Positions 409-40,699 of a DNA stretch of 40,699 nt are shown piece by piece. Position numbers and translations under genes: made by a program. How positions within the stretch are numbered: position 1 is the stretch's first letter; every line of letters begins with the position of its first letter. The notes under the pieces were generated by a model. It did no database searches. It saw nothing but the letters and a program-made list of their open reading frames with translations, and was not told the origin of the DNA. Source of the DNA: Bacillota bacterium (GTDB lineage Bacteria; Bacillota_G; Limnochordia; DTU010); NCBI GenBank assembly GCA_012799255.1, contig JAAZLQ010000319.1, positions 1-40,699 on the forward strand, in the 5' to 3' direction.

Positions 409-1050
409 TTAATACTCTTCCACCGGCATAGAACGGTAGAGTTCCTCCCCTTCGTACCACCGAAACTCATTGGCAGTATACTCTTGAATCGTCTGACGCA
501 AGGGTTCTTTTTCATGGGGGAAGGTCAATACATGAAAAGTCACTTGCTCTAAATATTCGGTATCCACAACAGTTATCCCCTGGGTGAGCAGCTCGTTTTG
601 AATTCTACCCGAGTGGACATAATCCACTGTGATGCTGATTTTTTGTGCCGGAACCATGCGAACAATACCGGCTTCTCGCAGGGCTTCCCTTGTTGCCCCG
701 CCGTAGGCACGGATCAAACCACCCCGTCCTAAAAGAGTGCCGCCAAAATAACGGGTCACAACTACAACAACATCAACTACCCCGTGCGACTTGAGGATTT
801 CCAACATAGGTAGTCCAGCGGTACCACTCGGCTCGTTATCATCACTATACTTTTGAATCTCTTGATTGATTCCTAAGATATAGGCAGGCACATTGTGGGT
901 AGCGTTCCAGTGCTCTTTGCGTACTTCGTCAATAAATGCTTCAGCAGCTTCTTGTGTTTGCACAGGCTTAATCCGGGCAATAAACTTTGACTTCTTTTCA
1001 ACAAGAGTTATCTCCGCTTCCCCTGCCACAGTCCTATACTCTACCAGCAT
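409..1050 (-). CDS. YigZ/YvyE family protein (IMPACT, UPF0029)
   Basis: A full-length 213-residue member of the YigZ/IMPACT family. The N-terminal UPF0029 domain (about residues 15-125) carries the signature DDNEPSGTAGLP near residues 70-81, followed by VVVVVTRYFGGTLLGRGGL. The C-terminal part (about 140-205) fits the small DUF1949 domain. Bacterial members are cytosolic and of uncertain function; the eukaryotic homologue IMPACT controls translation through GCN1/GCN2. The ATG at 1050 follows a GAGGTGG ribosome site. The gene is divergent from tex and 23 bases upstream of the truncated flavin reductase, with which it probably shares a transcript. Confidence 0.85.
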   Translation of the reverse strand: MLVEYRTVAGEAEITLVEKKSKFIARIKPVQTQEAAEAFIDEVRKEHWNATHNVPAYILGINQEIQKYSDDNEPSGTAGLPMLEILKSHGVVDVVVVVTRYFGGTLLGRGGLIRAYGGATREALREAGIVRMVPAQKISITVDYVHSGRIQNELLTQGITVVDTEYLEQVTFHVLTFPHEKEPLRQTIQEYTANEFRWYEGEELYRSMPVEEY

Positions 1051-1082
1051 ACTACCACCTCGCCATAGTGTTCAACATTATT

Positions 1083-1111
1083 TTGCATCTTCCTTCCAGT
1101 TCTGCTATTCT
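1083..1111 (+). promoter_or_regulatory. Sigma-A-type promoter of tex
   Basis: TTGCAT at 1083-1088 and TATTCT at 1106-1111 are separated by 17 bases, with transcription expected to begin about 15 bases before the AAAGAGGAGAG ribosome site of tex. Each hexamer departs from consensus, so this is a plausible rather than a certain promoter. Confidence 0.5.
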
Positions 1112-1133
1112 AATCAAAGAGGAGAGGATCTAC

Positions 1134-16012: not shown

Positions 16013-16957
16013 TTAGGCTAGAATTTCTTCAATCTTATTGAAAGTCTCTGAGCTTAGTTCAATGTCAACTGCTTTCACGTTCGCCTCAATTTGCTCTGGG
16101 CGAGAAGCTCCAACGAGTGCACTGGCCACGTTGGGCTGGCGTAAAACCCAAGCTAGGGCCATCTCTGCCAAAGAAATACCTAGTTCACCGGCTAGATCTT
16201 CTAGTGCATCAACTTTGGTCATGACTCCAGAGGAAATTAACTCCTGCACCGCTTTGTTAATGTCCGGATTAGAGGCTCTGGTTCCCTCGGGAATTCTTCC
16301 ACCTCTGTATTTACCAGTTAAAACTCCCTGAGCCAAGGGAGAAAAGACTATTTGACCGATACCGTGGTTTTCACTTAAGGGAATGATCTCAGGTTCAATG
16401 TATCGATTAAGCATATTATAAACGGGTTGGTTAACCACAATGCGGTCAAGTAGGTAGCGGTCGGCAATTCGCACTGCCTCTTCAATTTGAGCAGCAGTCC
16501 ACTGACTTACCCCTGCATAAAGTACTTTGCCCTGGCGGATCAGGTCATCAATTGTCCGTAGGGTTTCTTCTACTGGAGTCTCTGGATCATAACGGTGGCA
16601 GTAGAAAATGTCTACATAATCCAACTGCATCCGTTTTAGACTTGCATGCAACTGCTCAAAAACATGCTTGCGTGATAAGCCTCGGTCATTCGGACCATCG
16701 CCCATGGGCCAAAAAGCCTTCGTTGTAATGATGTAGGACTCCCTGGGAAAGACACGTAACGCTTCTGCCATTACCTTTTCCCCCTGCCCTCGCTCATAAA
16801 CATTGGCAGAATCAAAGGAATTAATCCCCAGTTCATAGGCACGTCTAATGGTCTTGATGGCAGTGTCATCCTCAACGGATTTTCCATACGTCAACCAACT
16901 ACCCAACGAGATTTCACTTACCTTTAGGCCTGAGTTTCCTAATCTGCGATACTTCAC
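16013..16957 (-). CDS. Aldo/keto reductase (Kv-beta/YghZ-like)
   Basis: A 314-residue (beta/alpha)8 NADPH-dependent oxidoreductase. The catalytic tetrad is visible: D49 (SFDSANVY), Y54, K80 (ITTKAFWP) and H121 (FYCHRYDP). The cofactor region near the C terminus has [14 protein letters not shown]. Overall it resembles the potassium-channel beta-subunit and YghZ branch, which reduces aldehydes and methylglyoxal. The GTG at 16957 overlaps the stop of the large activase gene (GTGA) and follows GAGGAG by eight bases, so the two are translationally coupled. The shared operon suggests a link in carbonyl or acyl metabolism, but the substrate is unknown. Confidence 0.9.
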
Positions 16958-19900
16958 GATATCATCTCCTCTCTCGATCTGTTAGTAAAAGCGGTGGAAA
17001 GCATGAGCTTAATCCGATTTAGTTGATTAACCTCACTGGCACCTGGATCGTAGTCTATAGCTATAATATTACTATCTGGGTAAGCTTTTTTCAATCCCCT
17101 CAACATACCTTTCCCTGTTACATGATTAGGCAAGCAGGCAAAGGGCTGCATACAGACGATATTTTTCACCCCGCTTTCTATAAGCTCAACCATTTCTCCA
17201 GTCAAAAACCATCCTTCACCCGTTTGGTGACCTAAAGATATAACCTTAGAGGCATTCTTGGCCACCTCTTGGATTAATCTTGGCGGCTGGAACCGTTTAC
17301 TTCTAGCGAGTGCTTTTTTCGCGATACTCCGATAGAACTCAATGATGTTGATGAGGGTATGACAGGCCAGCTGTTCAAGCTTTTTCCCAGCCAGATAGCG
17401 ATACTTAAAATCGAACCCAAAGAGGGAGTAGAGGAAAAAGTCGATTAAATCGGGTACAACTGCCTCGGCCCCTTCTGCTTCCACTAGACTCACAACATCA
17501 TTGTTAGCTGTGGGATGATATTTGACTAGGATTTCGCCCACCAAACCAACCCTCGGTTTTGTCTCCTGCGTGGTTTCAAAACAATCAAACTCTTCCACGA
17601 TGTTCATTATGTTCTCCTTGAATCGCCGAGGAGAATATGATCTGAGTGATTCCTGACAGATTTGAGCCCACTTCTCATAGAGTGCATTAGCAGAACCTGG
17701 TACCTGTTCATAGGGTCTGACCCGATAGAGACATTTCATCAAGAGATCTCCATAAACTAAGGCAATCATCGCCCTATGAAGCAAGGGGATAGTGATCTTA
17801 AAGCCCGGATTTTTCTCAAACCCTTGAGCACTTAACGAGATCACGGGCACTTGAGAATAACCAGCATCTTTGAGAGCCTTGCGTAAAAAGCCGATGTAAT
17901 TTGTGGCCCTACAGCCTCCACCGGTTTGACTCATAATGACAGTGGTGTTGTTTACATCGTACTTTCCAGAGTTAAGGGCCTTCAAAAGCTGGCCCACTAC
18001 AATAATCGCAGGATAACAGGCGTCATTGTTCACATACTTTAAACCTTCATCGATTGCGTCTTTGTCCATTGCAGGGCAAATCACCATGTCATAACCGGAC
18101 AGGCGGAACGCTTCTTCTAAGAAACGAAAATGAATCGGTGCCATCTGCGGGACAATAATCGTATGATTTTTCTTCATTGTTCTAGTGAAGATTTTTCTTT
18201 CAAAACCATAGTTGGACTCAGTTGGCTTGTGACCTTGTTTTTCCCGTTCTAAGACTGCTGCTTGTAAGGAGCGTAGTCTAATCCTGGCAGCTCCCAGATT
18301 GTTACCCTCATCAATCTTTAAACAGGTGTAAATCCTAGACCGGCTGTTCATTAACTCCTGGACCTGATCTGTAGTAACCGCATCTAAACCGCAACCAAAG
18401 GAGTTTAATTGTACCAATTCCAAGTTTTCCTGCCCGGCAACAAAACTAGCTGCCGCATACAATCTCGAATGATAAGCCCATTGATCTACAACCCTCAGTG
18501 GACGGGGTACTTTGCCTAAATGGGCCACAGAATCCTCAGTTAAGACTGCCATCCCCAAATCATTGATCAAATCAGGAATCCCATGGTTGATTTCTGGATC
18601 CAAATGGTAGGGACGGCCTGCTAAGACAATTCCCCTTAGCTTATGTTTCTTTAAGTAAGCTAAGGTTTCTTCCCCCTTGCGTCTCATGTCCGCCCTGTAA
18701 TTCGCCAGTTCAGCCCAGGCCTTGTCCACTGCGCGTTTTATTTCTGCAAAGCTAATATCCATGTGGGCAAATTCTTCAGACAAGCGCTCGGTGAGCCGCT
18801 TCTTATGGTAAAAGGGTAAGAAGGGATACATGAACTTAATGTTGTTGTCCTGTAAGTGTCCAACATTGTTATAAAGCACTTCAGGATAAGAAATTACTAT
18901 TGGGCAATTGAAATGATTATCGGCATGCTTTTGTTCTTTCTGCTCGTGAGTGAGGCAGGGATAAAAGATGAGATCCACGCCTTTTTCCACTAGATCAACT
19001 ATATGGCCATGGGTAATTTTCCCAGGATAGCAGACAGACTCTGAGGGAATTGTCTCCATACCCTTTTCATAGATAGCCTTTGATGATCTAGAAGAAAGCT
19101 GCACAGAAAAACCTAGCTCAGTAAAGAAAGTATGCCAGAAGGGATAATCCTCATACATATTTAAAACTCGGGGAATCCCGATAAGACCACGCTTAGCTTT
19201 AGTAGGTTCTAAAGGCTGATAGGCAAAGAGTCGTTTGTAGGAATAGTCGAAGAGATTCGGTAGATCCCTGTTTTTCTGTCCTTGGCCTGCTCCTTTGCTA
19301 CAGCGATTGCCAGAAATATAACGGCGCCCTTGGCCAAACTGGTTAATGGTTAACAGGCAATGATTGGCGCATCCTTTACATCTAGTTAGTTTTGAGTCCA
19401 AAGATAAGTTTTCCAACTCCTCACGGCCTAAGAGGTTGGATTGATACCCTTCCACGTATCTTTCTTTAGCGATTAAGGCGGCTCCAAAAGCACCCATAAG
19501 GCCTGAGATATCTGGCCGCACTACTTCACACTCCGCCAAACGTTCAAAGCTTCTTAAGACTGCATCATTATAAAACGTTCCGCCTTGAACCACAACTTTT
19601 TTACCCAAATCATCTTTATTGCGCAGTTTAATCACTTTATAAAGGGCGTTTTTGACAACCGAATAGGCAAGACCAGCTGAAATATCTCCCACTGTTGCCC
19701 CTTCCTTCTGGGCCTGCTTAACTCGGGAGTTCATAAAAACTGTACAGCGTGAACCTAAGTCTACAGGATTTGGCGCTAAAAGTGCCTCAGCTGTAAACTC
19801 CTCGATACTCAGATTAAGAGAGTAAGCAAAGGTTTCTAAAAAAGAGCCACAACCAGATGAACATGCTTCGTTTAAAAGGATGTGGTCAATTGCACCATCT

Positions 19901-21195
19901 TTAATCCTCAGACACTTCATGTCTTGCCCGCCAATATCGAGAATAAAGTCCACGCCCGGGAGGAAAAAATCTGCCCCCTTATAATGGGCCACCGTCTCAA
20001 TTTCCCCAATATCTACTCTTAAAGCGGCTTTAATTAATCCCTCACCATAACCAGTAACGGTGGAATTTTTGATTTTGGCACCAGCAGGCAGAACGTCATA
20101 TAACTTTAACACTGCCTTACGTACTGACTTAAGGGGATTACCTTCGTTACTGTCATAATAGCTATATAAAATGGCACCCTCATCATCAATAAGTGCGGCT
20201 TTAGTTGTGGTTGAACCCACATCTAGTCCTAAGAAGCAGTTTCCTTTATAGTGTGCGAGGTTTTTTCTCGTCACCGCATGCTGATTGTGCCTGGTACGAA
20301 ACTCGACCAATTCTTCTGGACTAGAAAACAAGGGTTCTAGCCGTATAGATTCTTCCATAGAAATGTCCTGTGCTTGTTTAAGGCGTTCCATGAGCGTGGC
20401 AAAGGATATTGACTTCCCGTTAAAGGCAAAAAGGGCCGCCCCGATGGCAATATAGAGCTGAGGGTTTTCCGGAAAAATCACTTGACTGTCTGTTAAGCCT
20501 AGAGTCTCAATGAAACGCTGCCTTAGTTCGGATAAAAAGTACAGGGGACCACCCAAAAAGGCCACATTGCCTTTGATCGGTCTACCGCATGCTAAGCCAC
20601 TCACTGTCTGTACCACAACTGACTGAAAAATAGAAGCAGCTACGTCTTCCTTGGCAGCACCTTCGTTTAAAAGGGGCTGAATGTCAGTTTTAGCAAAAAC
20701 CCCACAGCGAGCGGCAATGGGATAAATTGTGGTATGACGCTTTGCCAACTCATTTAAGCCGGCTGCATCCGTCCGCAGTAAGACTGCCATTTGATCGATA
20801 AAAGAGCCTGTACCACCCGCGCAAATTCCGTTCATGCGCTGCTCGATTCCGTCTTGGAAAAAGGTAATCTTGGCGTCTTCTCCCCCTAATTCAATAACGA
20901 CGTCTGTTTCCGGGAAAAAGGTCTGGATGGCTTTGGTTCCAGCTATTACTTCTTGCACAAACTCAACTTGTAGACGATCCGCCACAGAGATACCACCAGA
21001 GCCTGTAATAGCTAAAGCGACCTCACAGTCCCCAAATCTCTCAAACGCTTGGGTCATGAGGCTCACCACAGACTCCTTAATATCAGAGTAATGCCTTTGA
21101 TATTTGGAATAAATCACTTCTAGCTGATCGTTGAGGATGACAAGCTTAGCTGTTGTGGATCCAACATCAATCCCCATATGTACTACTTTTCTCAA
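16954..21195 (-). CDS. Double acyl-CoA dehydratase activase with DUF2229 and HgdB-like region
   Basis: A 1413-residue protein of a large family known from anaerobes. Two BadF/BadG/BcrA/BcrD ATPase domains follow each other (about 1-262 and 320-578), each starting with [10 protein letters not shown] or [10 protein letters not shown]. Both keep the cysteine pair that in HgdC holds a [4Fe-4S] cluster between subunits: C125 ([10 protein letters not shown]) and C164, and C445 ([11 protein letters not shown]) and C484. A CxxCxxxC motif (C606, C609, C613) and C632 follow, then DUF2229 and a C-terminal HgdB-like region. HgdC-type activators inject an electron, driven by ATP, into 2-hydroxyacyl-CoA dehydratases or double-cubane proteins. 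The TTG at 21195 follows GGAGG by nine bases. No separate dehydratase subunits are in view. Confidence 0.85.
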
Positions 21196-27855: not shown

Positions 27856-29112
27856 CTAGCCTAGTAAGAGTAGCATTGGTTGTTCCAGATAGCCTTTGAA
27901 ACGTCCAATAAATCTGCCCGCATTGCCACCGTCAATGAAGCGATGATCGAAAGCTAGTGTTATGGGAAGAATGTGGCGGACTGCGATCTCATCGTTATCT
28001 AGAACCACTGGCTTCTTGGTAATACTTCCAATCCCAAGAATGGCAGCTTCCGGATACTTAATCACCGGAATGCCAGATAAGGCTCCTACCGCACCGTAGT
28101 TAGTTAAGGTGAAAGTTCCACCTTGAATCTCATCCAAAGAAAGGGTACGTTCCCGAGCTTTGTCTGCCAAAGTCTGTACTTCCTTGCCTAGTTCTAGTAA
28201 GCCCTTTAGATCCGCGTTTTTGATCACCGGAACCAAGAGTCCATCTGGAGTATCAACGGCTATACCAATATTATAGTACTTCTTGAGGATAATCTCATGG
28301 GTCTCCCCGGCAAAACTGGCATTAAAGAGGGGAAATTCTTTTAGGGTCAGGGTGACTGCCTTGATAATAAAAGGCATGTAGGTGAGTTTGGAACCCTCCT
28401 GTTCAGCTAGAACTTTAGTTTCTCGCCTGAATTTCACTAACTCGGTCACATCAAACTCATCCATTACTGCCGCATGGGGGATTTCTTGCTTGGATAGGGC
28501 CATATTCTTGGCCACCGTTTTACCTAAAGTTGTGAGGGCAATTCGCTCTTCAATTGTCTTAAAAGCAGGTGCCGTAGCCGTTACTAGGTTGGGCTCTACC
28601 GCCTCCACGGTGTTTTCTGCCGCTCTCCTAATATCTTCTTTCATCACCCGTCCAGCAGGACCTGTACCTGCAACTGTGGTTATGTCTACTCCCAGATCCT
28701 TCGCTAACTTACGGGCCACAGGTGTGGCTAACGCTTTTCGTCTCTCTGGTGCCCAATCTTCAGTAGTGTGTTCATTACTTGCCTCAAAAACATTCGATGA
28801 TGTTTCTAAAGCCCCAACCACTGCGGCATTATCCTCTTCCACCGGTTCAGCCTGTGGCTCGTCAGGAGATGAGGAAGAGCCGTCATCTATTGTAACAACT
28901 ACATCACCTACGTTGATTGTCTCTCCCACTTCACCAAAGCGGGCCAAGATCTTACCATTGGTGGGGGCAGGTATTTCTGCATTTACTTTATCTGTTTCTA
29001 CTAAGAACAAGGAGTCGCCCTCTTTAACCTCTTGCCCAACTTCAACAAACCACTTTAGAATAACACCTTCCGCAATACCTTCACCGATATCTGGGAACTT
29101 AAACTCAAGCAT
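27856..29112 (-). CDS. pdhC: Dihydrolipoamide acetyltransferase (E2)
   Basis: A 418-residue E2 with a single lipoyl domain (about 1-78, lipoyl lysine K42 in ETDKVNAEI), an acidic Ser/Pro/Glu-rich linker, a peripheral-subunit-binding domain (about 128-165, ATPVARKLAKDLGVDITTV), a second linker and the catalytic acyltransferase core (about 190-418). The active-site histidine and aspartate are H390 and D394 in FDHRFIDGG. It builds the core of the complex and transfers acetyl to CoA. The ATG at 29112 follows AGGAGG. It lies between E1beta and E3. Confidence 0.95.
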   Translation of the reverse strand: MLEFKFPDIGEGIAEGVILKWFVEVGQEVKEGDSLFLVETDKVNAEIPAPTNGKILARFGEVGETINVGDVVVTIDDGSSSSPDEPQAEPVEEDNAAVVGALETSSNVFEASNEHTTEDWAPERRKALATPVARKLAKDLGVDITTVAGTGPAGRVMKEDIRRAAENTVEAVEPNLVTATAPAFKTIEERIALTTLGKTVAKNMALSKQEIPHAAVMDEFDVTELVKFRRETKVLAEQEGSKLTYMPFIIKAVTLTLKEFPLFNASFAGETHEIILKKYYNIGIAVDTPDGLLVPVIKNADLKGLLELGKEVQTLADKARERTLSLDEIQGGTFTLTNYGAVGALSGIPVIKYPEAAILGIGSITKKPVVLDNDEIAVRHILPITLAFDHRFIDGGNAGRFIGRFKGYLEQPMLLLLG

Positions 29113-29141
29113 GGCAAAACCTCCTGACTTATGAGCAAGTC

Positions 29142-30119
29142 TTAGTAGTGTACAACTTTTCTAATACCCGTGGCTATGCGATCAGCATCAAGGAAATAAT
29201 GGTGCTCGCCGCGGGGCAAGGGAATAGTGACATCAAAACCAGCTAAGCGGGTAGGAGGAGCCTCCAAATATAAGAATGCCCCTTCGTTAACCAGCGCAAT
29301 TAATTCCGCACCCGGTCCAAATGATTTAGCTGCTTCATGAACGACCACGAATCTACCGGTCTTCTGTACCGAATCTATAATCGTCTCCCGATCAATTGGC
29401 GAAATGGTTCGTAAATCAATGATCTCCACATCAATTCCTTCTTCGCGCAGGATTTTCTCCGCATTTAACACTTCATGGACATAAGCTCCCCAAGTTACCA
29501 CAGTAACATCTGTACCCGCTTTCAAAACCTTGGCTTTACCAATTGGTATTGTATAATCCTCCTCGGGCACTTCTTGTCGAAAAGCCCGGTAAATCTTCGA
29601 TGGTTCCAAGAAGATCACAGGATCATCATCACGAATCGCTGAGAGTAACAGCCCCTTAGCATCATAAGGAGTAGAAGGAGTGACCACTTTGAGGCCGGGA
29701 ATATGGCCTAGCAAGGTATCTAAACTCTCCGAATGATGTTCCAAGGCTTTAATACCTCCCCCATGGGGCATGCGAATGACCAGGGGAAGATTACGTTGTC
29801 CCCGGGTACGGTTGCGCATTCGAGCCACATGAGAGACAATCTGATTGTAGGCAGGATAAACGAAACCGGAGAATTGGATCTCCGCAACGGGTCGCAACCC
29901 ATTGATAGCCATTCCTATGGCTGAACCTACAATGGCTGACTCGGCGAGAGGAGTATCAAAACAGCGCTTATCACCGTATTTTGCTTGTAGTCCAACGGTG
30001 GCCCGAAAAACGCCTCCCTCAACCCCAACATCCTCGCCAAAAACAACGACACTTTCATCACGAGCCATCTCCAGATCCAAAGTGTGATTGATGGCACCGA
30101 TTAGGTTCATAAGAGCCAT
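29142..30119 (-). CDS. pdhB: Pyruvate dehydrogenase E1 beta subunit
   Basis: A 325-residue E1beta of normal length. ESVVVFGEDVGVEGGVFRAT, FDTPLAESAIVGSAIGMA and PVAEIQFSGFVYPAYNQI are typical of PdhB, and the C-terminal transketolase domain shows IDLRTISPIDRETI and VVVHEAAKSFGPGAE. It forms the alpha2beta2 E1 with PdhA, which uses thiamine diphosphate to decarboxylate pyruvate and acylate E2. Its ATG directly follows the pdhA stop, with AAGGTGG upstream. Confidence 0.95.
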   Translation of the reverse strand: MALMNLIGAINHTLDLEMARDESVVVFGEDVGVEGGVFRATVGLQAKYGDKRCFDTPLAESAIVGSAIGMAINGLRPVAEIQFSGFVYPAYNQIVSHVARMRNRTRGQRNLPLVIRMPHGGGIKALEHHSESLDTLLGHIPGLKVVTPSTPYDAKGLLLSAIRDDDPVIFLEPSKIYRAFRQEVPEEDYTIPIGKAKVLKAGTDVTVVTWGAYVHEVLNAEKILREEGIDVEIIDLRTISPIDRETIIDSVQKTGRFVVVHEAAKSFGPGAELIALVNEGAFLYLEAPPTRLAGFDVTIPLPRGEHHYFLDADRIATGIRKVVHY

Positions 30120-31205
30120 TTATTCCACCTTCCCCTCTAGATACTGAACATACTCTTCATATTGTTCACGGAGGTGATCTGGCATTTCTTGATAGTGATA
30201 CTTAAACAGATCCTCTACCTTTGGGTCACCTGTGGCCTCAATATTCCGGAATACTTCTAGGACGTTTTCACCGTATTCTTCATTTAAAGTGTCATCTTGT
30301 TCTTCACTCCACACGCCCCTAGTGATCAAATAAGCTTTCATACGCTTGATCGGATCTTTGGGTAGCCATTTCTCCACTTCACTGTCTTCCCGGTACTTGG
30401 TAGGATCGTCGGAGGTTGTATGGGCACCTAAGCGATAAGTGTAAGCTTCAATCAAAGTGGGACCACCGCCTTTGCGAGCCCGATCAATTGCTTCTTTGGT
30501 GGCAGCATACATGGCAAACAGGTCATTGCCATCAACTAGAATGCCTGGAATTCCGGCGGCAACCGCCTTTTGCACGAGAGTTTCAGCCTTAGTTTGTTTT
30601 TGCCTAGCAACCGAGATGGCGTATTGGTTGTTCTGGATAATGAAGACGACAGGTGCAGAAAACACACCTGCGAAGTTCAATGCCTCACTAAAATCGCCAA
30701 TAGATGTTCCCCCATCGCCAATATAAGCCACAGTCACATCCTCTTCCCCTTTAATTGTGGAAGCCATAGCGATGCCTACCGCATGCTGCAATTGGGAACC
30801 AATGGGAACTGCAATGGGAAGCACCCTCACATCCTCAGGAAAATTACTTCCCCATTCGTTACCGTACCAATACAGATAAACGCTCCGCAAATCTACACCA
30901 CGCTGAAGCCATGCACCCAACTCCCTAAATGCAGGCACAAGCCAATCATTTTTCGCCATGGCAGCTGCCGAACCTACCTGGGCAGCTTCTTGGCCTGTAT
31001 TAGGAGCGTAGGTGAGCATCCGTCCTTGCCTTTGGAGTTGAAGCGCTTTGTTATCGGCGTTCCTCGTCTTCAGCATCATCTTATATAATTCTAACCACTC
31101 TGTATCACTGAGATCAGGGACAAGATCTGGTCTAAGAATTATGCCTTTCTCATCCATAATCTGCAACATTTGACCCTTGAGGGGACCATACTGTTCAATT
31201 AACAT
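30120..31205 (-). CDS. pdhA: Pyruvate dehydrogenase E1 alpha subunit
   Basis: A 361-residue E1alpha. It has QRQGRMLTYAPNTGQEA (about 58-74), the thiamine diphosphate motif GDGGTSIGDFSEALNFAG (163-180, closed by QNN at 191-193), the phosphorylation-loop-like YRLGAHTTSDDPTKYR and a typical C-terminal helix. These are closer to pyruvate than to branched-chain or acetoin enzymes as I recall them, but the substrate is inferred. The ATG at 31205 is chosen because AAAGGCGGG precedes it; the open frame extends 26 codons upstream through the promoter. It is the first gene of the pdhABC-lpdA operon. Confidence 0.93.
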   Translation of the reverse strand: MLIEQYGPLKGQMLQIMDEKGIILRPDLVPDLSDTEWLELYKMMLKTRNADNKALQLQRQGRMLTYAPNTGQEAAQVGSAAAMAKNDWLVPAFRELGAWLQRGVDLRSVYLYWYGNEWGSNFPEDVRVLPIAVPIGSQLQHAVGIAMASTIKGEEDVTVAYIGDGGTSIGDFSEALNFAGVFSAPVVFIIQNNQYAISVARQKQTKAETLVQKAVAAGIPGILVDGNDLFAMYAATKEAIDRARKGGGPTLIEAYTYRLGAHTTSDDPTKYREDSEVEKWLPKDPIKRMKAYLITRGVWSEEQDDTLNEEYGENVLEVFRNIEATGDPKVEDLFKYHYQEMPDHLREQYEEYVQYLEGKVE

Positions 31206-31254
31206 AGTAGCCCGCCTTTCTAAGAGTGTAATTATTACCAACTTACTTATATTG

Positions 31255-31283
31255 AGCATAACAAAAATGAGAATGATTTTCAA
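31255..31283 (-). promoter_or_regulatory. Sigma-A promoter of the pdh operon
   Basis: On the minus strand, TTGAAA (31278-31283) and TATGCT (31255-31260) are separated by 17 bases, about 50 bases upstream of pdhA. The -35 hexamer and most of the spacer are covered by the Fur-like box. Confidence 0.75.
31268..31282 (-). promoter_or_regulatory. Fur-like box over the pdh promoter
   Basis: The 15-mer TGAGAATGATTTTCA (plus-strand reading) matches the 7-1-7 Fur consensus TGATAATNATTATCA at 12 of 14 fixed positions. The TGA/TCA ends favour Fur over PerR (TTA/TAA) and Zur. Because it overlaps the -35 hexamer and spacer, bound repressor would block RNA polymerase, so the operon may be induced when iron is scarce. 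The regulator itself is not in this window. Confidence 0.65.
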
Positions 31284-33293: not shown

Positions 33294-33878
33294 CTAAAGT
33301 TTCCAGAAGCAAGATTGACAAACTTCCTTATAAAGGCGTACAGATTCTCGGAAGAGCTTTTCATCGCGAGTGCGCAAAGCTTCGTCTATGCGCACTTTCA
33401 AGGTAATTCCCCACAAAATCAAATCCACTTGCTCTCGCACAAAAGAAGCAAATCCCGCAGCAAGCCCCGGAGGAATAGCCTCATTGGGTACTACAATTTC
33501 CTCATACCAGTCAGGAGTGGATTCTCTAAAAACCAACTGTACATGCAGAAGACCCGAAAAACTTTGCAGAACATCCCAGGCAACTAAGGGATCCGAAATG
33601 GAGACTTCTCTGGTTTTTTGCGTTTCTCTACGCAAACCACCATTCACTAGAGTAAGGTGCTCTGATTCACTCCCTAACTGCAACTCAAAACCGACTTCTT
33701 CCGTTCCCATCTGGGAGATAAGCATAGTATTTGGCAAGTAGTCTCTGGTTGTGACGAAAACAAGTCTTTTCAATAGTTCTGGATCCGCCCAGATCTTTTC
33801 TAAAAGGGCCTTGCTTGACTCATGTTTCAAGGGAACCTCACAAAAACGGCGCAAAGCATATTCTTTGTGTATGACCAT
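33294..33878 (-). CDS. YpiB-like protein (UPF0302 plus IDEAL motif)
   Basis: A 194-residue protein that resembles Bacillus YpiB. Residues 1-135 fit UPF0302: KALLEKIWADPELLKRLVFV, followed by LPNTMLIS, LVAWDVLQSFSGLLHVQLVF and PDWYEEIVV, in the family's order. Near the C terminus, VRIDEALRTRDEKLFRESVR contains the short IDEAL motif (residues 164-168). The family is cytosolic and of unclear function; Bacillus work links IDEAL proteins to protein-protein contacts. The ATG at 33878 follows AGGAGGGG. I did not find a promoter. The assignment rests on recalled similarity, so it is moderate. Confidence 0.55.
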   Translation of the reverse strand: MVIHKEYALRRFCEVPLKHESSKALLEKIWADPELLKRLVFVTTRDYLPNTMLISQMGTEEVGFELQLGSESEHLTLVNGGLRRETQKTREVSISDPLVAWDVLQSFSGLLHVQLVFRESTPDWYEEIVVPNEAIPPGLAAGFASFVREQVDLILWGITLKVRIDEALRTRDEKLFRESVRLYKEVCQSCFWKL

Positions 33879-33944
33879 CTCGCCCCTCCTAGCCAAAGAA
33901 GATCACTACACTATATGCAAAAGCTAGTTAAGAATTCTCCTAGT

Positions 33945-34731: not shown

Positions 34732-34761
34732 TTGACCAGAACACTTGTTCTGCATTATAAT
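34732..34761 (+). promoter_or_regulatory. Promoter of the imuB-dnaE2 operon
   Basis: TTGACC (34732-34737) and a consensus TATAAT (34756-34761) are separated by 18 bases. An SOS box fills the spacer, so LexA would block the promoter directly. Confidence 0.85.
34738..34751 (+). promoter_or_regulatory. SOS box 1 (LexA/DinR operator)
   Basis: AGAACACTTGTTCT is a palindrome with the GAAC-N4-GTTC core of the Gram-positive LexA consensus CGAACRNRYGTTCG. It lies between the -35 and -10 hexamers. Confidence 0.85.
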
Positions 34762-34766
34762 TTATA

Positions 34767-34780
34767 CGAACAGATGTTCC
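34767..34780 (+). promoter_or_regulatory. SOS box 2 (LexA/DinR operator)
   Basis: CGAACAGATGTTCC matches the LexA/DinR consensus at all but its last base. It lies just beyond the -10, around the expected start of transcription and before the GAGGAGGGG ribosome site. Confidence 0.9.
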
Positions 34781-34794
34781 AGAGGAGGGGTGTC

Positions 34795-35916
34795 ATGATC
34801 GTCTACTGTGGCTTACGCCACTTTTATATTCGAAATTTTGAGCCGCCTCTTATCGCAGGCTCACAGACAGACGCTTACTATATTTTAACACACATTAAAG
34901 AAGTCTGGGACTTTTCCCCCAAACTCAAAGATCACGGTTTCACTAATCAAGCCAAAGGACGGGCAGTTTTGCACCTGGACAAACCGATTATAAAGGTTGA
35001 CATTGACTTGAATAATTTCGCCACTTTCGCCAAAAGATGGCATGATTTTTCCCGCCAATACACTCACGAACTTGAAATAGAGTATCCCCATTCTTGGTAC
35101 TTACGTTTCGAGCAACCAGCTATTTTTAGGCAATTCATCTTGGATTTTAGTGCAAGTTTACACCAAGAGGAAGGTGGTGGTATTTGGGGTGCTGGGAACA
35201 GCAAATTGGTGGCCAAATTGGCGGCACACAATCTCACAGGTCATGAGCGGGTGGTTCTCCCTGAACAAACAGAAGATTTTCTCAACAAACTTCCCTTACA
35301 TCGTTTGCACCTCCCAGAACTCACCAACTTAGAAAAGCTGGGCGTAAAAACGATCGGAGAACTTGGCAAAATACCCTTAGTTGAGCTCGTAAGCCAATTT
35401 GGGTCAAGGGCTTCGTCCTTACAAAAGTTGGGAAAGGGACAAGATCTTGTTCCCTTCCAAACTGAGCACACCCAAGAATATAGCTGGTCTCTAGATTGTA
35501 CCACCTTAGAAGAATTTTTAAGGCCTTTAGATCCCCAAGAGCTAAAACCCTATCTGCAAGAAGGCATTAATACGTTAGCGACCACATTGCAAGAAAAGCA
35601 CAAAGTAGCTGGTGAAATACGAGTGGAAGCTATCCTAGCCAGTGGAGCTAGTTTTCAAGAAAAACGTCAAATCAAAGGAGCAACAGATGACGCCAAACGT
35701 TTAAAACTGGTGCTAGAAAGCCTTCTTCCTCTGGAAACTATAGCCCAAATTAGCATTGTGCTAGGCAATCTTTCAGCTTCCCCCTTGGCCCAATTAAATA
35801 TGTTCTGGGATCCTCAAGCGCCACAATTATGTGAGCGTGAACTACCTGCTCAAGTAGGTATCGAGCTCTCACGCCGTGAACGTCTTTTGATTCTCTGGGA
35901 GGAGTATTTTTCATGA
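34795..35916 (+). CDS. imuB: ImuB-like catalytically inactive Y-family polymerase homologue
   Basis: A 373-residue Y-family-like protein. GAGNSKLVAKLAA (132-144) matches the fingers motif, LHRLHLPELTNLEKLGVKTIGEL (about 169-190) the thumb, and FGSRASSLQKLGKGQDLVP (202-220) the start of the little finger. The palm does not carry the catalytic residues: the place of SIDEAYLD is taken by EYPHSWYLRFE (96-106), and motif I is absent. QLNMF (333-337) near the C terminus resembles a beta-clamp-binding motif. This fits ImuB, which carries DnaE2 to the clamp during SOS mutagenesis. The ATG at 34795 follows GAGGAGGGG. No ImuA-like gene is visible. Confidence 0.75.
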   Translation: MIVYCGLRHFYIRNFEPPLIAGSQTDAYYILTHIKEVWDFSPKLKDHGFTNQAKGRAVLHLDKPIIKVDIDLNNFATFAKRWHDFSRQYTHELEIEYPHSWYLRFEQPAIFRQFILDFSASLHQEEGGGIWGAGNSKLVAKLAAHNLTGHERVVLPEQTEDFLNKLPLHRLHLPELTNLEKLGVKTIGELGKIPLVELVSQFGSRASSLQKLGKGQDLVPFQTEHTQEYSWSLDCTTLEEFLRPLDPQELKPYLQEGINTLATTLQEKHKVAGEIRVEAILASGASFQEKRQIKGATDDAKRLKLVLESLLPLETIAQISIVLGNLSASPLAQLNMFWDPQAPQLCERELPAQVGIELSRRERLLILWEEYFS

Positions 35917-36152
35917 GCAAGTTGATCAATCAGCCCATTGAGCTTAAGTTTAAAGGCAGTTTCCCTTCATCCTTTTACTGGGGGCGCGAATTTAAAGTCA
36001 AGTATATCCTCAAACATTGGCGGGAAAGTGGTCAATGGTGGCTCGATGAGCCGGAGCTTTTCGTCTATGAAGTAAGCACCAATTATTGTCGTTGCGAGCT
36101 CCACTTTTTTCCCACTAGGGATCAATGGATTTTATACCGTTTAGCAGATTAG
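35913..36152 (+). CDS. Small DUF6504-like protein of the ImuB-DnaE2 cassette
   Basis: A 79-residue cytosolic protein. Its sequence (FYWGREFKVKYILKHWRESG, WWLDEPELFVYEVST, CRCELHF and WILYRLAD) matches the plan of the small DUF6504 family that sits beside ImuB/DnaE2 genes in Actinobacteria, as I recall it. Function is unknown; the location suggests a third component of the mutasome. The ATG overlaps the imuB stop (ATGA), so translation is coupled. The dnaE2 ribosome site overlaps its end. Confidence 0.6.
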   Translation: MSKLINQPIELKFKGSFPSSFYWGREFKVKYILKHWRESGQWWLDEPELFVYEVSTNYCRCELHFFPTRDQWILYRLAD

Positions 36153-36166
36153 TGGAGGTTTTTTTC

Positions 36167-39100
36167 ATGTTTGTTCACCTTCATGTCCATTCCCCCTATT
36201 CTTTTCTAGATGGTGCCTCTTCTCTGGAGGCTTTACTTAACCAAGCCGCTAAGTTGAACCTGCCCGCCATTGCTTTAACGGACCATAATAATGTGAGCGG
36301 TGCGGTCGAGTTCCAAAAAAGGGCTCTAGAACTTGGAATAAAGCCCATTCAAGGTGCCGAAATCACCACAGAGGATGGAACCCACCTTACCCTTTTAGCT
36401 GAAAACAACCAGGGTTACCAAGCATTATGTCGCCTTATCACGGCTGGCTACGCTCAAGGTCCCAGGCACCAGTGTTTGGTTCCTTGGCAGGCGTTAAGAG
36501 ATAATGCCAGCGATTTGATTGCCTTAAGTGGTTGCCACCGCTCTGGCGTAGCCCAGGCCATTTTACGCAAAGACTATGCCAAAGCGAAGACAGAAGTACA
36601 ACGCTTAGTAGAAATTTTTGGTTCTGATCGAGTCTACTTAGAAATGATTCATAACTATTTACCATTCACTAAGCATCTCCTCACTGAGCTTGATCGGCTC
36701 CATAAAGAACTACACATTCCTTTAGTAGCAACCAATAATGTCCATTATGTTCGTAAAGAAGATTTCCCCATTCATGACCTTTTGGTATGCACGCGCACCA
36801 AAACCAAATTACGGGAGATTCACCCCGAGCGACCCTTTAATGGTGAAAACTACTTAGCCTCAACGGAAGAAATGAAAAGGCGCTTCGCGGCCTTCCCAGA
36901 GGCTATTACGAACACTATTGAGATTGCGGAGCGTTGCAGTGTGGTATTAGATTTGACACAAAACCTCTTTCCACGTTTTTTCCCTGGTGAGGGGCCTGAA
37001 AAAACCAGCCAATTTTTGCGTGAGCTAACCTGGCAGGGAGCGGAAAGACGCTATTCGACAATTTCTCCCCAGCTTAAAGAGCGCATTGAGCACGAGCTTA
37101 GTATTATTGAGCATCTGGATGTGGCCGACTACTTTTTAACAGTATGGGATCTTGTCCAATATGCGAAGAACCAAAATATCCGCTACGCGGGTAGGGGTTC
37201 TGCCGCTGATTCGGTAGTTGTCTATTGTTTGGGAATTACCAATGTGGACGCTTTTTCTAGGGGGCTTCTTTTTGAGCGGTTTTTAAGTCTGGAACGGGCT
37301 CAAAAACCCGATATTGATATCGACTTTGATGCCCTCTATAGGGATCATGTGGCTAATTATGTTTATGAACGCTATGGTTCTGATCATGTGGCTTCCGTTT
37401 GTACTTTTCAAACCTACCACGCCCGTTCAGCGCTTAGAGATCTGGGCAAAGCTTTGGGACTCGCTCCCACTGAATTGCAACAGTTAACCAAAAACATTAC
37501 TAGTATTCCTGCAGATGGCATCCGTTCTTTGCTACAAAGACTCCCCGAGCTCAAAAGACACCCTTTGCAGCAAACAAAATATAGTAAGCTCCTAGATTAT
37601 TGTGCTGCCATTAATGCTTTTCCTAGACAAATTGGTACCCATCTTGGGGGGTTAGTTGTGAGCGGAGAACCTTTAACCAAAGTTACTCCCCTACAGCCTT
37701 CCGCGAAGGGAGTGTTGATCACTCAATTTGATAAAGACACCATAGAAGATCTAGGTTTAATTAAAATCGACCTCCTCTCTTTACGCACACTCTCAGCCGT
37801 TTCCGATACGGTCAAACAGGTGGGCCCAAGGCTAGAGTATAATGAGATTCCCACCAACGATAGCGCCACCTTTCAAAGACTTCAAAGGGGTGATACTGTA
37901 GGGGTATTTCAATTGGAAAGTCCCGCTCAACGCAGTTTGCAATCGCGCTTGCAGGCGGATCGCTTTGAAGATATTGTGGCCAGCGTAGCTTTAATTAGAC
38001 CAGGGCCCATCAAAGGCAATATGGTGGAACCTTTTATCGCTCGCAGACATGGGCAAGAGGAAGTGACCTTTATTCATCCCAAACTGGAAAAGATCTTAGC
38101 TTCTACCTATGGAGTGGTCTTATATCAAGAGCAGGTCATTGAAATTGCTTCAGAAATTGCTGGCTTTACCCCTGGCGAATCGGATCGTCTGCGCAAGGCG
38201 ATGGCCAAATTGCGTTCTCAAGCTGAGATGGAGGAGATTGGGGCGAATTTTATTAAAAAATCGATAGACAGGGGTGTGGACAAGGAAACAGCAAAAGTTA
38301 TCTTTTCTTATATTCTAAGTTACGCAGGTTACGGATTCTGCGAAGCCCATGCCGCTGCTTTCGCAGACACTGCCTATCGCACCGCATATCTACTAGAGCA
38401 TTATCCCGCCCAATTTTATGCTGCCCTCTTAAACGGACAGCCCATGGGCTTTTATCCTCCAAACACTCTTTGTGTGCAAGCTCGCAAAAGGGGAATTACC
38501 ATCTTACCTTTACACATAAATGAGAGTGGCGTGGAGTTTGAGACAGATGACACTACCATTCGAATTGGTCTAAAACAAGTTAAAGGGATGGAAACAGCCT
38601 TTTTAACTTCCATAATAGAAGCGAGGGAAAAGGAACCGTTTAGCTCTGTACAAGATTTTGTCTTCCGAACCAATGTAAGTAAAGATGTAACTGAAAATTT
38701 GATCTTAGGTGGTGCCTTTGATTGGTTTTCAGCTAATCGTCGAGCCCTAATCTGGAGTTTGCCCAAGTGCTATCAAAACAGACAGGGAAGTCTTTTTTTA
38801 GAGACTTTCCCCGCTGATAATACTGTTGCTGATTTCACTCCCTTTGATCGTTGGCTCAAAGAATACTCTGTCCTACGTCTTACTGCTCAAGGACACATTC
38901 TGGATTTTTTCAGATCCACACTGCCTAAAACAGTGCTTACCAGCAAAGAGATTGTCGCTCGTACTCAAGGTATTGTACAAATGGCTGGCCTTGTAATCAG
39001 ACCACATCGACCTCCGACCAAAAGTGGTAGGATAGTAGTATTTTTAACCCTAGAAGACGAGCATGGGCTGATCGATGTGACTATTTTTGAAGACGTCTAT

Positions 39101-39220
39101 AAGAAATACGCTAAAACCATTTTTAATGAACCCTTACTCCTTGTTACAGGAGAACTTTCTCAGCGTGATTCCAAGGAAAGAGCTTGTATTATCGCAACAC
39201 ATATCAAAAGCTTACCCTAG
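36167..39220 (+). CDS. dnaE2: Error-prone DNA polymerase III alpha, DnaE2 type
   Basis: A 1017-residue C-family polymerase. The N-terminal PHP domain (about 1-230) shows HLHVHSPYSFLDGASS and ALTDHNN. The palm has the catalytic aspartates D382 and D384 in KPDIDIDFD and the third, D535, in IKIDLLSL. VALIRPGPIKGN, YQEQVIEIA and a tandem helix-hairpin-helix follow, and an OB domain closes it (about 940-1010). Length and motifs fit DnaE2 (usually about 1050), the translesion polymerase of ImuABC mutasomes, rather than the replicative DnaE. The ATG at 36167 is chosen because GGAGG stands eight bases upstream. Its stop overlaps the convergent ypeB stop. Confidence 0.9.
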   Translation: MFVHLHVHSPYSFLDGASSLEALLNQAAKLNLPAIALTDHNNVSGAVEFQKRALELGIKPIQGAEITTEDGTHLTLLAENNQGYQALCRLITAGYAQGPRHQCLVPWQALRDNASDLIALSGCHRSGVAQAILRKDYAKAKTEVQRLVEIFGSDRVYLEMIHNYLPFTKHLLTELDRLHKELHIPLVATNNVHYVRKEDFPIHDLLVCTRTKTKLREIHPERPFNGENYLASTEEMKRRFAAFPEAITNTIEIAERCSVVLDLTQNLFPRFFPGEGPEKTSQFLRELTWQGAERRYSTISPQLKERIEHELSIIEHLDVADYFLTVWDLVQYAKNQNIRYAGRGSAADSVVVYCLGITNVDAFSRGLLFERFLSLERAQKPDIDIDFDALYRDHVANYVYERYGSDHVASVCTFQTYHARSALRDLGKALGLAPTELQQLTKNITSIPADGIRSLLQRLPELKRHPLQQTKYSKLLDYCAAINAFPRQIGTHLGGLVVSGEPLTKVTPLQPSAKGVLITQFDKDTIEDLGLIKIDLLSLRTLSAVSDTVKQVGPRLEYNEIPTNDSATFQRLQRGDTVGVFQLESPAQRSLQSRLQADRFEDIVASVALIRPGPIKGNMVEPFIARRHGQEEVTFIHPKLEKILASTYGVVLYQEQVIEIASEIAGFTPGESDRLRKAMAKLRSQAEMEEIGANFIKKSIDRGVDKETAKVIFSYILSYAGYGFCEAHAAAFADTAYRTAYLLEHYPAQFYAALLNGQPMGFYPPNTLCVQARKRGITILPLHINESGVEFETDDTTIRIGLKQVKGMETAFLTSIIEAREKEPFSSVQDFVFRTNVSKDVTENLILGGAFDWFSANRRALIWSLPKCYQNRQGSLFLETFPADNTVADFTPFDRWLKEYSVLRLTAQGHILDFFRSTLPKTVLTSKEIVARTQGIVQMAGLVIRPHRPPTKSGRIVVFLTLEDEHGLIDVTIFEDVYKKYAKTIFNEPLLLVTGELSQRDSKERACIIATHIKSLP

Positions 39221-40503
39221 AAAAACTGGGGCGAGCTTACTTGCACTATCTGCTCTTCTTCCCCCGTATCCGCATTGAGATAGATCAGATAATAATCATC
39301 TTGGTATCTCACCCCTAGCCTAGTGGTGAGTACTTCACCTTGCCCTTCCAGTTCAATTAAGACCAGCTTTTCATCTAATATTTCCAGATCACTTCTGATC
39401 TTATCCTGGGGAATCCAGTTAATCTCCTTGGCAAGCTCAACTTCTCCTTCGCGGCTCTGAGCCACATAAAAGGGGGTTCCCCAAAAACCGAGTATGCTGC
39501 CATCTGCCGCACTGACCTGTACTTTAAGAGGTTCGCCATAACGTAAAATTCCATCCCTTGCTGGAACAAAGGTTATCGTAGCCTTGTTCTGTAACACTTG
39601 AAGATCTGTAACGTTTAACGGGGGAAACCCCCTTTCCTCTAAAAAACGTGCTCCCCTCGCGACCATTTCTTCTGCCGACAATCCGCTTTCTCGAATTTCG
39701 CGGGAATGGACCATCCACAAAACCAGTCCTCCCTTTTGAGACACTTCCACAATAATGCGTTCCTCCCCATCTTTAGCCTCCACCGTGTAGGAAGGAATTG
39801 CTCCTTTAGTCTCATTTGTAACCTGAAAGTTCAAGCTACCCTGACCAATAAAGGTTCGGGCTACTTCTACCGCTTGTTCGCGCCCGATACTCTCCCCTAA
39901 GATTTCTCCCCGTTTAAAAACTCCGTCTTGTACCAATGAGGTTCCTATCCTAATCTCCCCTAATCCAGCATTGATTAGGGCAAATGCCTGCAAAAAATCT
40001 GGGACGACAACCGAGGTCGTTAAATATTCGTGCCATGATACCCAAGGATACTCAAACTGTTTGTGGAGCACAAGTTGGTTTAGTTCATGATTTACATATT
40101 GAACTTGTCCATAAAGCTCATCTATAGTGGTTGGGTCCAATTTTTCTTGACTGTAGAAGTAGGTCTGCTCATATAGTTCATCTAAAAGTTGGCAGACTCC
40201 CTCCAGATTGACTTCACCTAGAGGCAACTCACCCAGATTGCTTTGTACTGCATAAATCAGACTCCGCAAATTAGCTCCAATAAGGCTGCGTTGACCTGGG
40301 CTAACCGCCAACCTAGCTCGGCCCATTTCGGCAGTCAGCGCTTGGAAATGAGTCCCAAGCTCACTTAGAGCCCGCCGGTATCCTGCTTCTACCTGAGTCT
40401 GATAGGCACGATGGAGATAATATTGTCCAGCTACGAACCCCACACCTATAAGAACTAAAGCGAAGATTATGCTTATGAGTTTTTGCCTAAGACCTTTGCC
40501 CAC
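39217..40503 (-). CDS. ypeB: Spore germination protein YpeB
   Basis: A 428-residue YpeB, close to the family's usual length. It has one N-terminal membrane helix (about 10-27), a helical domain containing FYSQEKLDPTTIDELYGQVQYVN and KQFEYPWVSWHEYL, and C-terminal PepSY-type repeats (about 220-428, for example IGREQAVEVARTFIG). YpeB localises and stabilises the cortex-lytic enzyme SleB in the spore. The GTG at 40503 is preferred because AGGGGG lies six bases upstream; a longer ATG start at 40530 would overlap sleB. It follows sleB by ten bases. Confidence 0.93.
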   Translation of the reverse strand: MGKGLRQKLISIIFALVLIGVGFVAGQYYLHRAYQTQVEAGYRRALSELGTHFQALTAEMGRARLAVSPGQRSLIGANLRSLIYAVQSNLGELPLGEVNLEGVCQLLDELYEQTYFYSQEKLDPTTIDELYGQVQYVNHELNQLVLHKQFEYPWVSWHEYLTTSVVVPDFLQAFALINAGLGEIRIGTSLVQDGVFKRGEILGESIGREQAVEVARTFIGQGSLNFQVTNETKGAIPSYTVEAKDGEERIIVEVSQKGGLVLWMVHSREIRESGLSAEEMVARGARFLEERGFPPLNVTDLQVLQNKATITFVPARDGILRYGEPLKVQVSAADGSILGFWGTPFYVAQSREGEVELAKEINWIPQDKIRSDLEILDEKLVLIELEGQGEVLTTRLGVRYQDDYYLIYLNADTGEEEQIVQVSSPQFF

Positions 40504-40513
40504 GTTAATCCCC

Positions 40514-40699
40514 CTAACTCGCGAAAACATGTTTCCCGATGGTCTTAATCACTTCACGACTGCGAATCCACGCACTTCTGGTTTTTGCAGGGTTATAGAA
40601 ATATAAAGCGCCTCCCGATGGATCTAGTCCGTTTAAGGCTGCATGGGCAGCTTGAACCGCACTGTCATTGGCAGGCTTGTTAACCTGTCCATTGGCTAC
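40514..40699 (-). CDS. sleB: Spore cortex-lytic enzyme SleB, C-terminal fragment
   Basis: The last 61 codons of a gene that starts beyond the window. The residues NGQVNKPANDSAVQAAHAAL, then LDPSGGALYFYNPAKT and VIKTIGKHVFAS, are the C terminus of the SleB/CwlJ hydrolase domain (Hydrolase_2). SleB is a lytic transglycosylase that opens spore-cortex peptidoglycan at muramic lactam during germination. Its stop codon overlaps the AGGGGG ribosome site of ypeB, as in the usual sleB-ypeB operon. This pair is the main evidence that the host forms endospores. Confidence 0.95.
   Translation of the reverse strand, partial: VANGQVNKPANDSAVQAAHAALNGLDPSGGALYFYNPAKTRSAWIRSREVIKTIGKHVFAS

What the first reader, a model, noticed from the sequence alone, without database searches (positions are those of the whole stretch)
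34732..39220. SOS-controlled ImuB-DUF6504-DnaE2 mutagenesis cassette without ImuA in a spore-former
Two close matches to the Gram-positive LexA box overlap a TTGACC/TATAAT promoter in front of three tightly packed genes: an ImuB-like Y-family protein, a small DUF6504-like protein and DnaE2. ImuABC-type cassettes are best known from Proteobacteria and Actinobacteria. Here the RecA-like ImuA/ImuA' is missing and a small protein takes the middle place, so the complex may work in a reduced form.
Basis: partly seen in the sequence, partly recalled or inferred. Interest (0 to 1): 0.78.

Follow-up and report, generated by a model that had tools for sequence, protein, structure and literature searches.

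The report
Damage-induced polymerase set without RecA dock
This bacterial DNA carries a three-gene set, switched by DNA damage, for an error-prone DNA polymerase of a type already described in print, but its scaffold protein has lost the segment thought to hold a RecA-type partner, which points to a pared-down version that may work with the sliding clamp alone.

Summary
Window 34795-39220 is a compact operon behind two LexA-type boxes 29 bp apart: a catalytically dead Y-family protein (iPolY), a 79-aa DUF6504 protein and a DnaE2-type polymerase. DUF6504 is the detached C-terminal domain of ImuB, so the first two genes are a split ImuB. This gene set without ImuA was described in print in 2013, 2019 and 2026, so the absence of ImuA is not new. 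In print RecA is thought to replace ImuA by docking on the RecA-NT motif of iPolY. New here: in the window and its clade (64 sequences) that motif is gone. The stretch between clamp motif and C-terminal RRE tail is 20-30 residues in 63 of 64 (median 37 in other iPolYs), and a RecA-NT profile finds 0 of 64 against 25 of 35; yet the clamp motif is kept and the gene is under purifying selection. No ImuA was recognised in 15 relatives. I conclude: a new variant of a known, predicted kind, probably a clamp-tethered DnaE2 mutasome without a RecA-family subunit. No complex was modelled or tested, and the window's own genome is not held.

The parts
34732..34761 (+). sigma-A-type promoter TTGACC-18 bp-TATAAT
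   Evidence: 11 of 12 consensus bases
34738..34751 (+). LexA-type box 1 AGAACACTTGTTCT, inside the promoter spacer
   Evidence: tandem pair conserved in the clade
34767..34780 (+). LexA-type box 2 CGAACAGATGTTCC, just downstream of the -10, 29 bp from box 1
   Evidence: no mismatch to CGAACRNRYGTTYC
34795..35916 (+). iPolY: catalytically dead Y-family protein (polymerase part of a split ImuB), RecA-NT motif deleted
   Evidence: AF2 model; Foldseek
35791..35805 (+). codons of the beta-clamp-binding motif QLNMF (iPolY residues 333-337)
   Evidence: Q333, L334, F337 invariant in 44 aligned sequences
35872..35913 (+). codons of the C-terminal RRE helix of iPolY (residues 360-373), the element that follows RecA-NT in other iPolYs
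35913..36152 (+). DUF6504 protein = standalone ImuB-C domain
   Evidence: (hhalign 94.9%, E 4.6e-8)
36167..39220 (+). DnaE2-type polymerase (probably DnaE2X); KPDIDIDF active site, QGSLF clamp-like motif at residue 873, PHP site with one change (TNNVHY)

Best explanation
The operon encodes an SOS-induced translesion polymerase. LexA bound to the tandem boxes shuts the promoter and LexA cleavage after DNA damage opens it (inferred from the boxes and standard LexA biology). [quoted passage not shown] tuberculosis ImuA-ImuB-DnaE2 model). Unlike the versions described in the papers read, this clade's iPolY has no RecA-NT motif, and no ImuA was recognised in relatives, so the complex most likely works without a RecA-family subunit, controlled by its SOS expression and by clamp binding (iPolY and, in many members, DnaE2 bear a clamp-like motif). 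Shown: gene content, boxes, dead active site, domain identity of DUF6504, loss of the motif, purifying selection. Inferred: assembly, bypass activity, independence of RecA after induction.
For: iPolY lies upstream of the DnaE in 61 of 70 loci; of the other 9, 5 are cut off by a contig end and 4 are DnaE1-type genes. Dead site: 0 of 105 iPolYs show the D-D-E triad (a few rows are truncated there), 14 of 14 active Y-family proteins of relatives do. RecA-NT: 0 of 64 window-clade tails score at p<=0.05 with a profile made from RecA and active PolYs only, against 25 of 35 other iPolYs; spacer from clamp motif to RRE tail 20-30 residues in 63 of 64 (P0028 has 41) against 31-49 in 33 of 35; the AF2 model leaves 332-355 under pLDDT 50 with no helix-strand unit between clamp motif and tail. 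Clamp motif Q-x-x-[LMIV]-[FL] kept in 62 of 64, the other two read QLEFF. No such motif found in DUF6504 (window and 4 relatives) or DnaE2 (window and 2 relatives). The window clade is one side of a branch (100*) and lies among motif-bearing lineages. The active PolY of the same genomes shows a RecA-NT in 7 of 8 window-clade genomes; the eighth gene appears cut at a contig end. ImuA: with NF033429 15 of 15 genomes show only RecA (43-54 bits) and hits of at most 21.3 bits, while 3 of 3 control ImuA-type genes were found. iPolY dN/dS 0.12-0.22 in five window-clade pairs.
Against: The RecA-NT profile also misses most canonical ImuB-type controls (p<=0.05 in 3 of 12), so its silence alone is weak; the length argument carries more weight. 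With a broadened profile three window-clade proteins reach p<=0.05 (P0003, P0007, P0036), about as many as chance gives among 64. RecA or ImuA could bind other surfaces: in the M. tuberculosis model ImuB-C also touches ImuA (PMC12926913). Box cores were found before 8 of 14 lexA but 0 of 15 recA genes of relatives. No complex was modelled. Nothing shows that the operon is expressed, induced or mutagenic.
Confidence: 0.55

Rival explanations
1. An ordinary member of the published DnaE2X-iPolY-ImuB-C-RecA type: RecA is still the fourth subunit and binds through ImuB-C, DnaE2 or the RRE tail although the RecA-NT motif has eroded.
For: Same gene content as described in PMC6511836 and PMC12926913. 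Each of 15 relatives has one RecA-level hit. The RRE tail remains conserved and ends in a helix.
Against: In mycobacteria RecA-NT is what holds the partner: the L378A/V383A double change phenocopies the deletion (PMC11791113). The helix-strand unit is missing here. With a helix-only RecA-NT profile the best match of the window's last 110 residues is its RRE tail, but at p 0.34, and the tail also occurs in iPolYs that have RecA-NT (24 sequences).
Confidence: 0.28
2. A diverged ImuA analogue is encoded elsewhere and completes the complex through a new interface.
For: ImuA families diverge strongly: Pfam RecA found only 1 of 3 control ImuA-type genes. The relatives are mostly metagenome assemblies of untold completeness.
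Against: NF033429 found 3 of 3 controls and nothing but RecA and hits of at most 21.3 bits in 15 relatives. PMC6511836 and PMC12926913 also report no imuA in genomes with this gene set.
Confidence: 0.07
3. The iPolY gene is decaying and DnaE2 works alone.
For: iPolY dN is about 1.5-2.3 times that of DnaE; the N-terminal region is missing in some sister lineages such as L017, L047, L049. The window DnaE2 carries its own clamp-like motif QGSLF.
Against: dN/dS 0.12-0.22, clamp motif and tail nearly invariant in the clade, tandem boxes kept.
Confidence: 0.06
4. The DnaE is the replicative polymerase of the organism and the operon is housekeeping.
For: NCBIfam scores DnaE1 (894) slightly above error-prone DnaE (888).
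Against: Among G001-G009 (8 window-clade genomes and one intermediate) a second DnaE is found in 9 of 9 and PolC in 8 of 9. The tree joins it with DnaE2A and T. roseum DnaE2 (100*). LexA-type boxes at the promoter.
Confidence: 0.02

Closest known systems
DnaE2X - iPolY - standalone ImuB-C - RecA putative mutasome (Kyrpidia tusciae type; PMC6511836, PMC12926913)
   Same: Same three genes in one operon, inactive Y-family protein, no ImuA; DnaE on the DnaE2 side
   Different: Published members are said to have RecA-NT in the Y-family protein; it is deleted in the window and its clade
ImuA-ImuB-DnaE2 mutasome (M. tuberculosis and others)
   Same: LexA-type control, dead Y-family scaffold with clamp motif, ImuB-C domain, DnaE2
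   Different: ImuB split into two genes, no ImuA, no RecA-NT; DnaE2 with a clamp-like motif (M. tuberculosis DnaE2 is stated to lack one, PMC11791113)
DnaE2B-iPolY-RecA (Streptomyces scDinB2 type; PMC12926913)
   Same: Dead Y-family protein beside a DnaE2, no ImuA
   Different: No ImuB-C in its described composition; RecA-NT present according to the paper
ImuB-C superfamily (PMC3765255)
   Same: DUF6504 here is a standalone member next to DnaE2 and an inactive DinB-like protein, a combination named in that paper
   Different: The neighbouring Y-family protein lacks RecA-NT; the motif was not known in 2013

Membership tests
ImuA-ImuB-DnaE2 mutasome | RecA-like ImuA present | tested here: not met
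   absent from the operon and not recognised in 15 of 15 relatives, 3 of 3 controls found; the window's own genome is not held
ImuA-ImuB-DnaE2 mutasome | ImuB with fused ImuB-C | tested here: not met
   ImuB-C is a separate gene, hhalign 94.9%, E 4.6e-8
ImuA-ImuB-DnaE2 mutasome | catalytically dead Y-family scaffold with clamp motif | tested here: met
   triad lost, QLNMF
DnaE2X-iPolY-ImuB-C-RecA type | operon of iPolY, standalone ImuB-C and DnaE2 | tested here: met
DnaE2X-iPolY-ImuB-C-RecA type | RecA-NT motif in iPolY | tested here: not met
DnaE2X-iPolY-ImuB-C-RecA type | DnaE2X branch of the DnaE2 tree | tested here: inconclusive
   on the DnaE2 side, apart from two DnaE2A; no named DnaE2X such as that of K. 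tusciae was placed in the tree
DnaE2X-iPolY-ImuB-C-RecA type | RecA is a physical subunit | not testable with these tools
   only single-chain models available
LexA (SOS) regulon of Gram-positive bacteria | CGAAC-N4-GTTCG-type box at the promoter, shared with lexA | tested here: met
   same core before 8 of 14 lexA genes of relatives, but before 0 of 15 recA genes
LexA (SOS) regulon of Gram-positive bacteria | induction by DNA damage | not testable with these tools
   no expression data
DnaE2 (error-prone) | disrupted PHP metal site | tested here: met
   one change from HHDHEH[C/H]DH, D to N in TNNVHY; by the paper's rule any deviation counts as inactive. Six operon relatives (L017, L043, L045, L046, L054, L055) keep D there

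The most novel reading that the evidence does not exclude
A DnaE2 mutasome that has shed its RecA-family subunit altogether: neither ImuA nor RecA is part of the polymerase, and SOS expression plus clamp binding are its only controls. This would contradict the statement in PMC12926913 that the Y-family partners of DnaE2B and DnaE2X are all capable of RecA binding, and would show that the RecA-type subunit is dispensable in evolution.
Probability: 0.45. Interest if true: 0.68.

Novelty: new variant of a known kind. Interest (0 to 1): 0.45.

Why it matters
What the RecA-like subunit does in mutagenic polymerases is an open question: in mycobacteria the ImuB-ImuA' contact through RecA-NT is needed for mutagenesis (PMC11791113), and RecA is the accepted activator of Pol V (recall). 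A natural clade that kept the scaffold, the bridge domain, the polymerase and the LexA-type promoter but lost the docking motif is a ready-made comparison: motif-bearing sister systems exist in related genomes, so the need for a RecA subunit becomes directly testable with purified proteins.

Tried and rejected
Rejected: DnaE as the replicative enzyme (second DnaE in 9 of 9 and PolC in 8 of 9 genomes G001-G009). Rejected: DUF6504 as an ImuA substitute (it is ImuB-C). Considered: RecA-NT relocated to DUF6504, DnaE2 or the RRE helix; no signal in the proteins scanned. A broadened RecA-NT profile that included other iPolYs is circular for those iPolYs; it gave 3 of 64 window-clade hits at p<=0.05 (P0003, P0007, P0036; spacers 24, 26 and 30), about the chance number. 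NF033429's built-in control panel gave no genome over its cut-off, so plasmid controls were added; Pfam RecA missed 2 of those 3. Pfam's DUF6504 model is weak for this family: over its cut-off in 6 of 15 relatives, none of the 8 window-clade genomes among them, and in ImuB controls it gave 17.7 bits (below cut-off) for A. fabrum and nothing for B. glumae or T. roseum; the identification rests on the profile comparison. Foldseek found no PDB relative of the DUF6504 model at E<=0.001. Exact GAACN4GTTC was not found upstream of recA in 15 relatives; mismatched boxes were not sought there. Rows dropped: P0001 (the window itself) and P0045-P0050 (fragments or distant) were scored but left out of the 64; P0002-P0044 were put in the window clade by similarity (40-68% identity), not by tree, and some are the same proteins as the loci; L018, L020, L032, L033, L060 (contig ends) and L064-L067 (DnaE1) have no iPolY; 10 truncated DnaE rows and the masked or frameshifted short DnaE genes L071, L074, L079 were left out of the trees. 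The dN/dS values use mechanical ORFs, some of which start upstream of the likely start codon.
Full report
WHAT IS THERE. The operon runs 34795-39220 on the + strand: iPolY (373 aa), DUF6504 (79 aa, ATGA overlap) and DnaE (1017 aa). It is flanked by a divergent metallo-beta-lactamase-fold gene and a convergent ypeB. Two GAACN4GTTC palindromes, 29 bp apart, lie on either side of the -10 of a TTGACC-18-TATAAT promoter. In relatives, 40 of 58 loci with upstream DNA have the exact core near the iPolY start where 2% are expected; 55 of 58 have a core or a match with up to 2 mismatches (about 8% expected from the background rate); 17 of the 19 window-clade loci with upstream DNA have the tandem pair. 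The same core stands before 8 of 14 lexA genes of relatives, so it is very likely the LexA box, although it was not found before recA in 15 of 15. LexA itself was found in 14 of 15 relatives.

RELATIVES. A scan of genome contigs with six peptide patterns of the DnaE gave 70 loci. Most titles name Bacillota, Firmicutes or Clostridia metagenome assemblies, several Limnochordia. iPolY lies upstream in 61 of 70 and DUF6504 in 60 of 70; of the 9 without iPolY, 5 are cut by a contig end and 4 (L064-L067) are DnaE1-type genes. In some loci of the L022-L027 group a gene that reads as tryptophanyl-tRNA synthetase (recognised from recall) lies on the other strand between DUF6504 and dnaE2.

DNAE2. NCBIfam is undecided. 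In an ML tree of 77 DnaE proteins the window and 56 operon relatives group with A. fabrum and B. glumae DnaE2A (imuA-type and Y-family genes beside them) and T. roseum DnaE2, apart from 17 DnaE1, DnaE3 and short DnaE proteins (SH-aLRT 100). That tree is a quick LG+G4 search and the tool warned of long branches, also at this split. A second tree of the 60 DnaE2-side rows under LG+C20 keeps the window clade as one side of a branch (100). Among G001-G009 (8 window-clade, 1 intermediate) a second DnaE is found in 9 of 9 and PolC in 8 of 9. In the window DnaE2 the PHP site has one substitution, the polymerase motif is intact, and QGSLF lies where the DnaE1 clamp-type motifs align; in the clade this motif varies (for example KRGLP in L012).

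DUF6504 IS IMUB-C. The profile of 61 DUF6504 proteins (55 used by the program) aligns with the C-terminus of nine alphaproteobacterial ImuBs at 94.9% and E 4.6e-8. Two full-length ImuBs are themselves called DUF6504 family protein in their records. The AF2 model is all-beta apart from one short helical stretch, pLDDT 90.5, with no PDB match at E<=0.001, in line with PMC12926913, which calls ImuB-C a beta-barrel without close relatives in the PDB.

IPOLY IS DEAD BUT KEPT. Of 105 iPolYs (window, 61 loci, 43 database proteins; the last two sets overlap) none shows the D-D-E triad; 14 of 14 active Y-family proteins of relatives do. AF2 gives mean pLDDT 83, pTM 0.60, and Foldseek finds Y-family polymerases (best E 5.7e-20). 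In six pairs with finite dS (five window-clade, one intermediate) dN/dS is 0.12-0.22 for iPolY and 0.04-0.08 for DnaE (Nei-Gojobori, several dS values near 1 or above; the window's own pairs are saturated for iPolY).

THE LOST RECA DOCK. PMC6511836 (passages) and PMC12926913 (outline, three sections and passages) describe this operon type and propose that RecA replaces ImuA by binding RecA-NT; the latter says that the Y-family partners of DnaE2B and DnaE2X are all capable of RecA binding. In most other iPolYs here, about 37 residues with a helix-FG-strand unit lie between the clamp-motif position and a RRE/RRD tail (31-49 in 33 of 35; the clamp motif itself fits the strict pattern in 18 of 35). 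In the window clade the middle is 20-30 residues in 63 of 64. A 28-column profile from 13 RecAs and 10 active PolYs of the relatives (the PolY windows were picked by a motif search, so they only train the profile) finds 25 of 35 other iPolYs at p<=0.05 and 0 of 64 of the window clade; the lowest p there is 0.088 (P0036). Six sister proteins (L016, L017, L021, L047, L049, L051) are intermediate: spacers 26-32, 0 of 6 significant, L049 and L021 with a visible remnant. Two other loci (L043, L059) also have short spacers and lie elsewhere in the tree, so erosion may have happened more than once. Caveat: the profile misses 9 of 12 control ImuB-type proteins. The clamp motif stays: Q333, L334 and F337 are invariant in 44 aligned proteins. 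In the same genomes the active PolY keeps a recognisable RecA-NT.

NO IMUA. Genomes of 15 of the 70 loci were searched. Each has one RecA-level hit (466-481 bits); other Pfam RecA hits are at most 26.1 bits. NF033429 (ImuA) sees only those RecAs and hits of at most 21.3 bits, while it found the ImuA-type genes of 3 of 3 control plasmids at 222, 50 and 31 bits. Completeness of these genomes is not told.

MECHANISM AND NOVELTY. In the M. tuberculosis model of PMC12926913 DnaE2 contacts the thumb and ImuB-C; both have counterparts here. PMC11791113 (abstract, outline and one section) shows that RecA-NT is needed for the ImuA' contact and for mutagenesis in mycobacteria. So the likely working unit here is iPolY + ImuB-C + DnaE2 on the clamp, without a RecA-type subunit. 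The gene set is already described (PMC3765255, passages). A clade without RecA-NT was not seen in the listings of searches or in the passages read; supplementary files could not be opened, so it may be recorded there. Hence a new variant of a known kind, of moderate interest.

Noticed in passing
L072-L079 (relatives G002-G009) and L071 (G001): The second DnaE of G001-G009 is a short, fast-evolving form (951-1021 aa where unbroken) with a degraded PHP site in the six aligned, in place of the longer DnaE1 found in G010-G015.
   Followed up: partly
L086-L093: PolC of the relatives is 1140-1153 aa and appears to lack the inserted exonuclease domain (read directly in L087; the others by length); PMC3919608 says PolC without it occurs in Clostridia (passage).
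   Followed up: partly
L099-L113: No exact GAACN4GTTC in the 330 bp upstream of the RecA EKQ[FY]GKG codons in 15 of 15 relatives, although lexA has it in 8 of 14; recA may lie outside this regulon or have weaker boxes.
   Followed up: no
L022, L024, L025, L027, L048: A gene that reads as trpS on the opposite strand separates DUF6504 from dnaE2 (5 loci translated), and in this group iPolY has RecA-NT but no good clamp motif while DnaE2 has QxSLF.
   Followed up: partly
window 33294-33896 and 39217-40530: A UPF0302/ReoY-like gene and a ypeB germination gene lie near the operon, in line with a spore-forming Bacillota.
   Followed up: no
L149 (Thermomicrobium roseum plasmid): A RecA-like gene, an iPolY-like gene and DnaE2 in a row, with no DUF6504 hit in the iPolY-like protein.
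   Followed up: no
window 987-3290, 16954-21195, 27856-31283: Tex, a large CoA-enzyme activase and 2-oxoacid dehydrogenase E1 and E2 genes.
   Followed up: no
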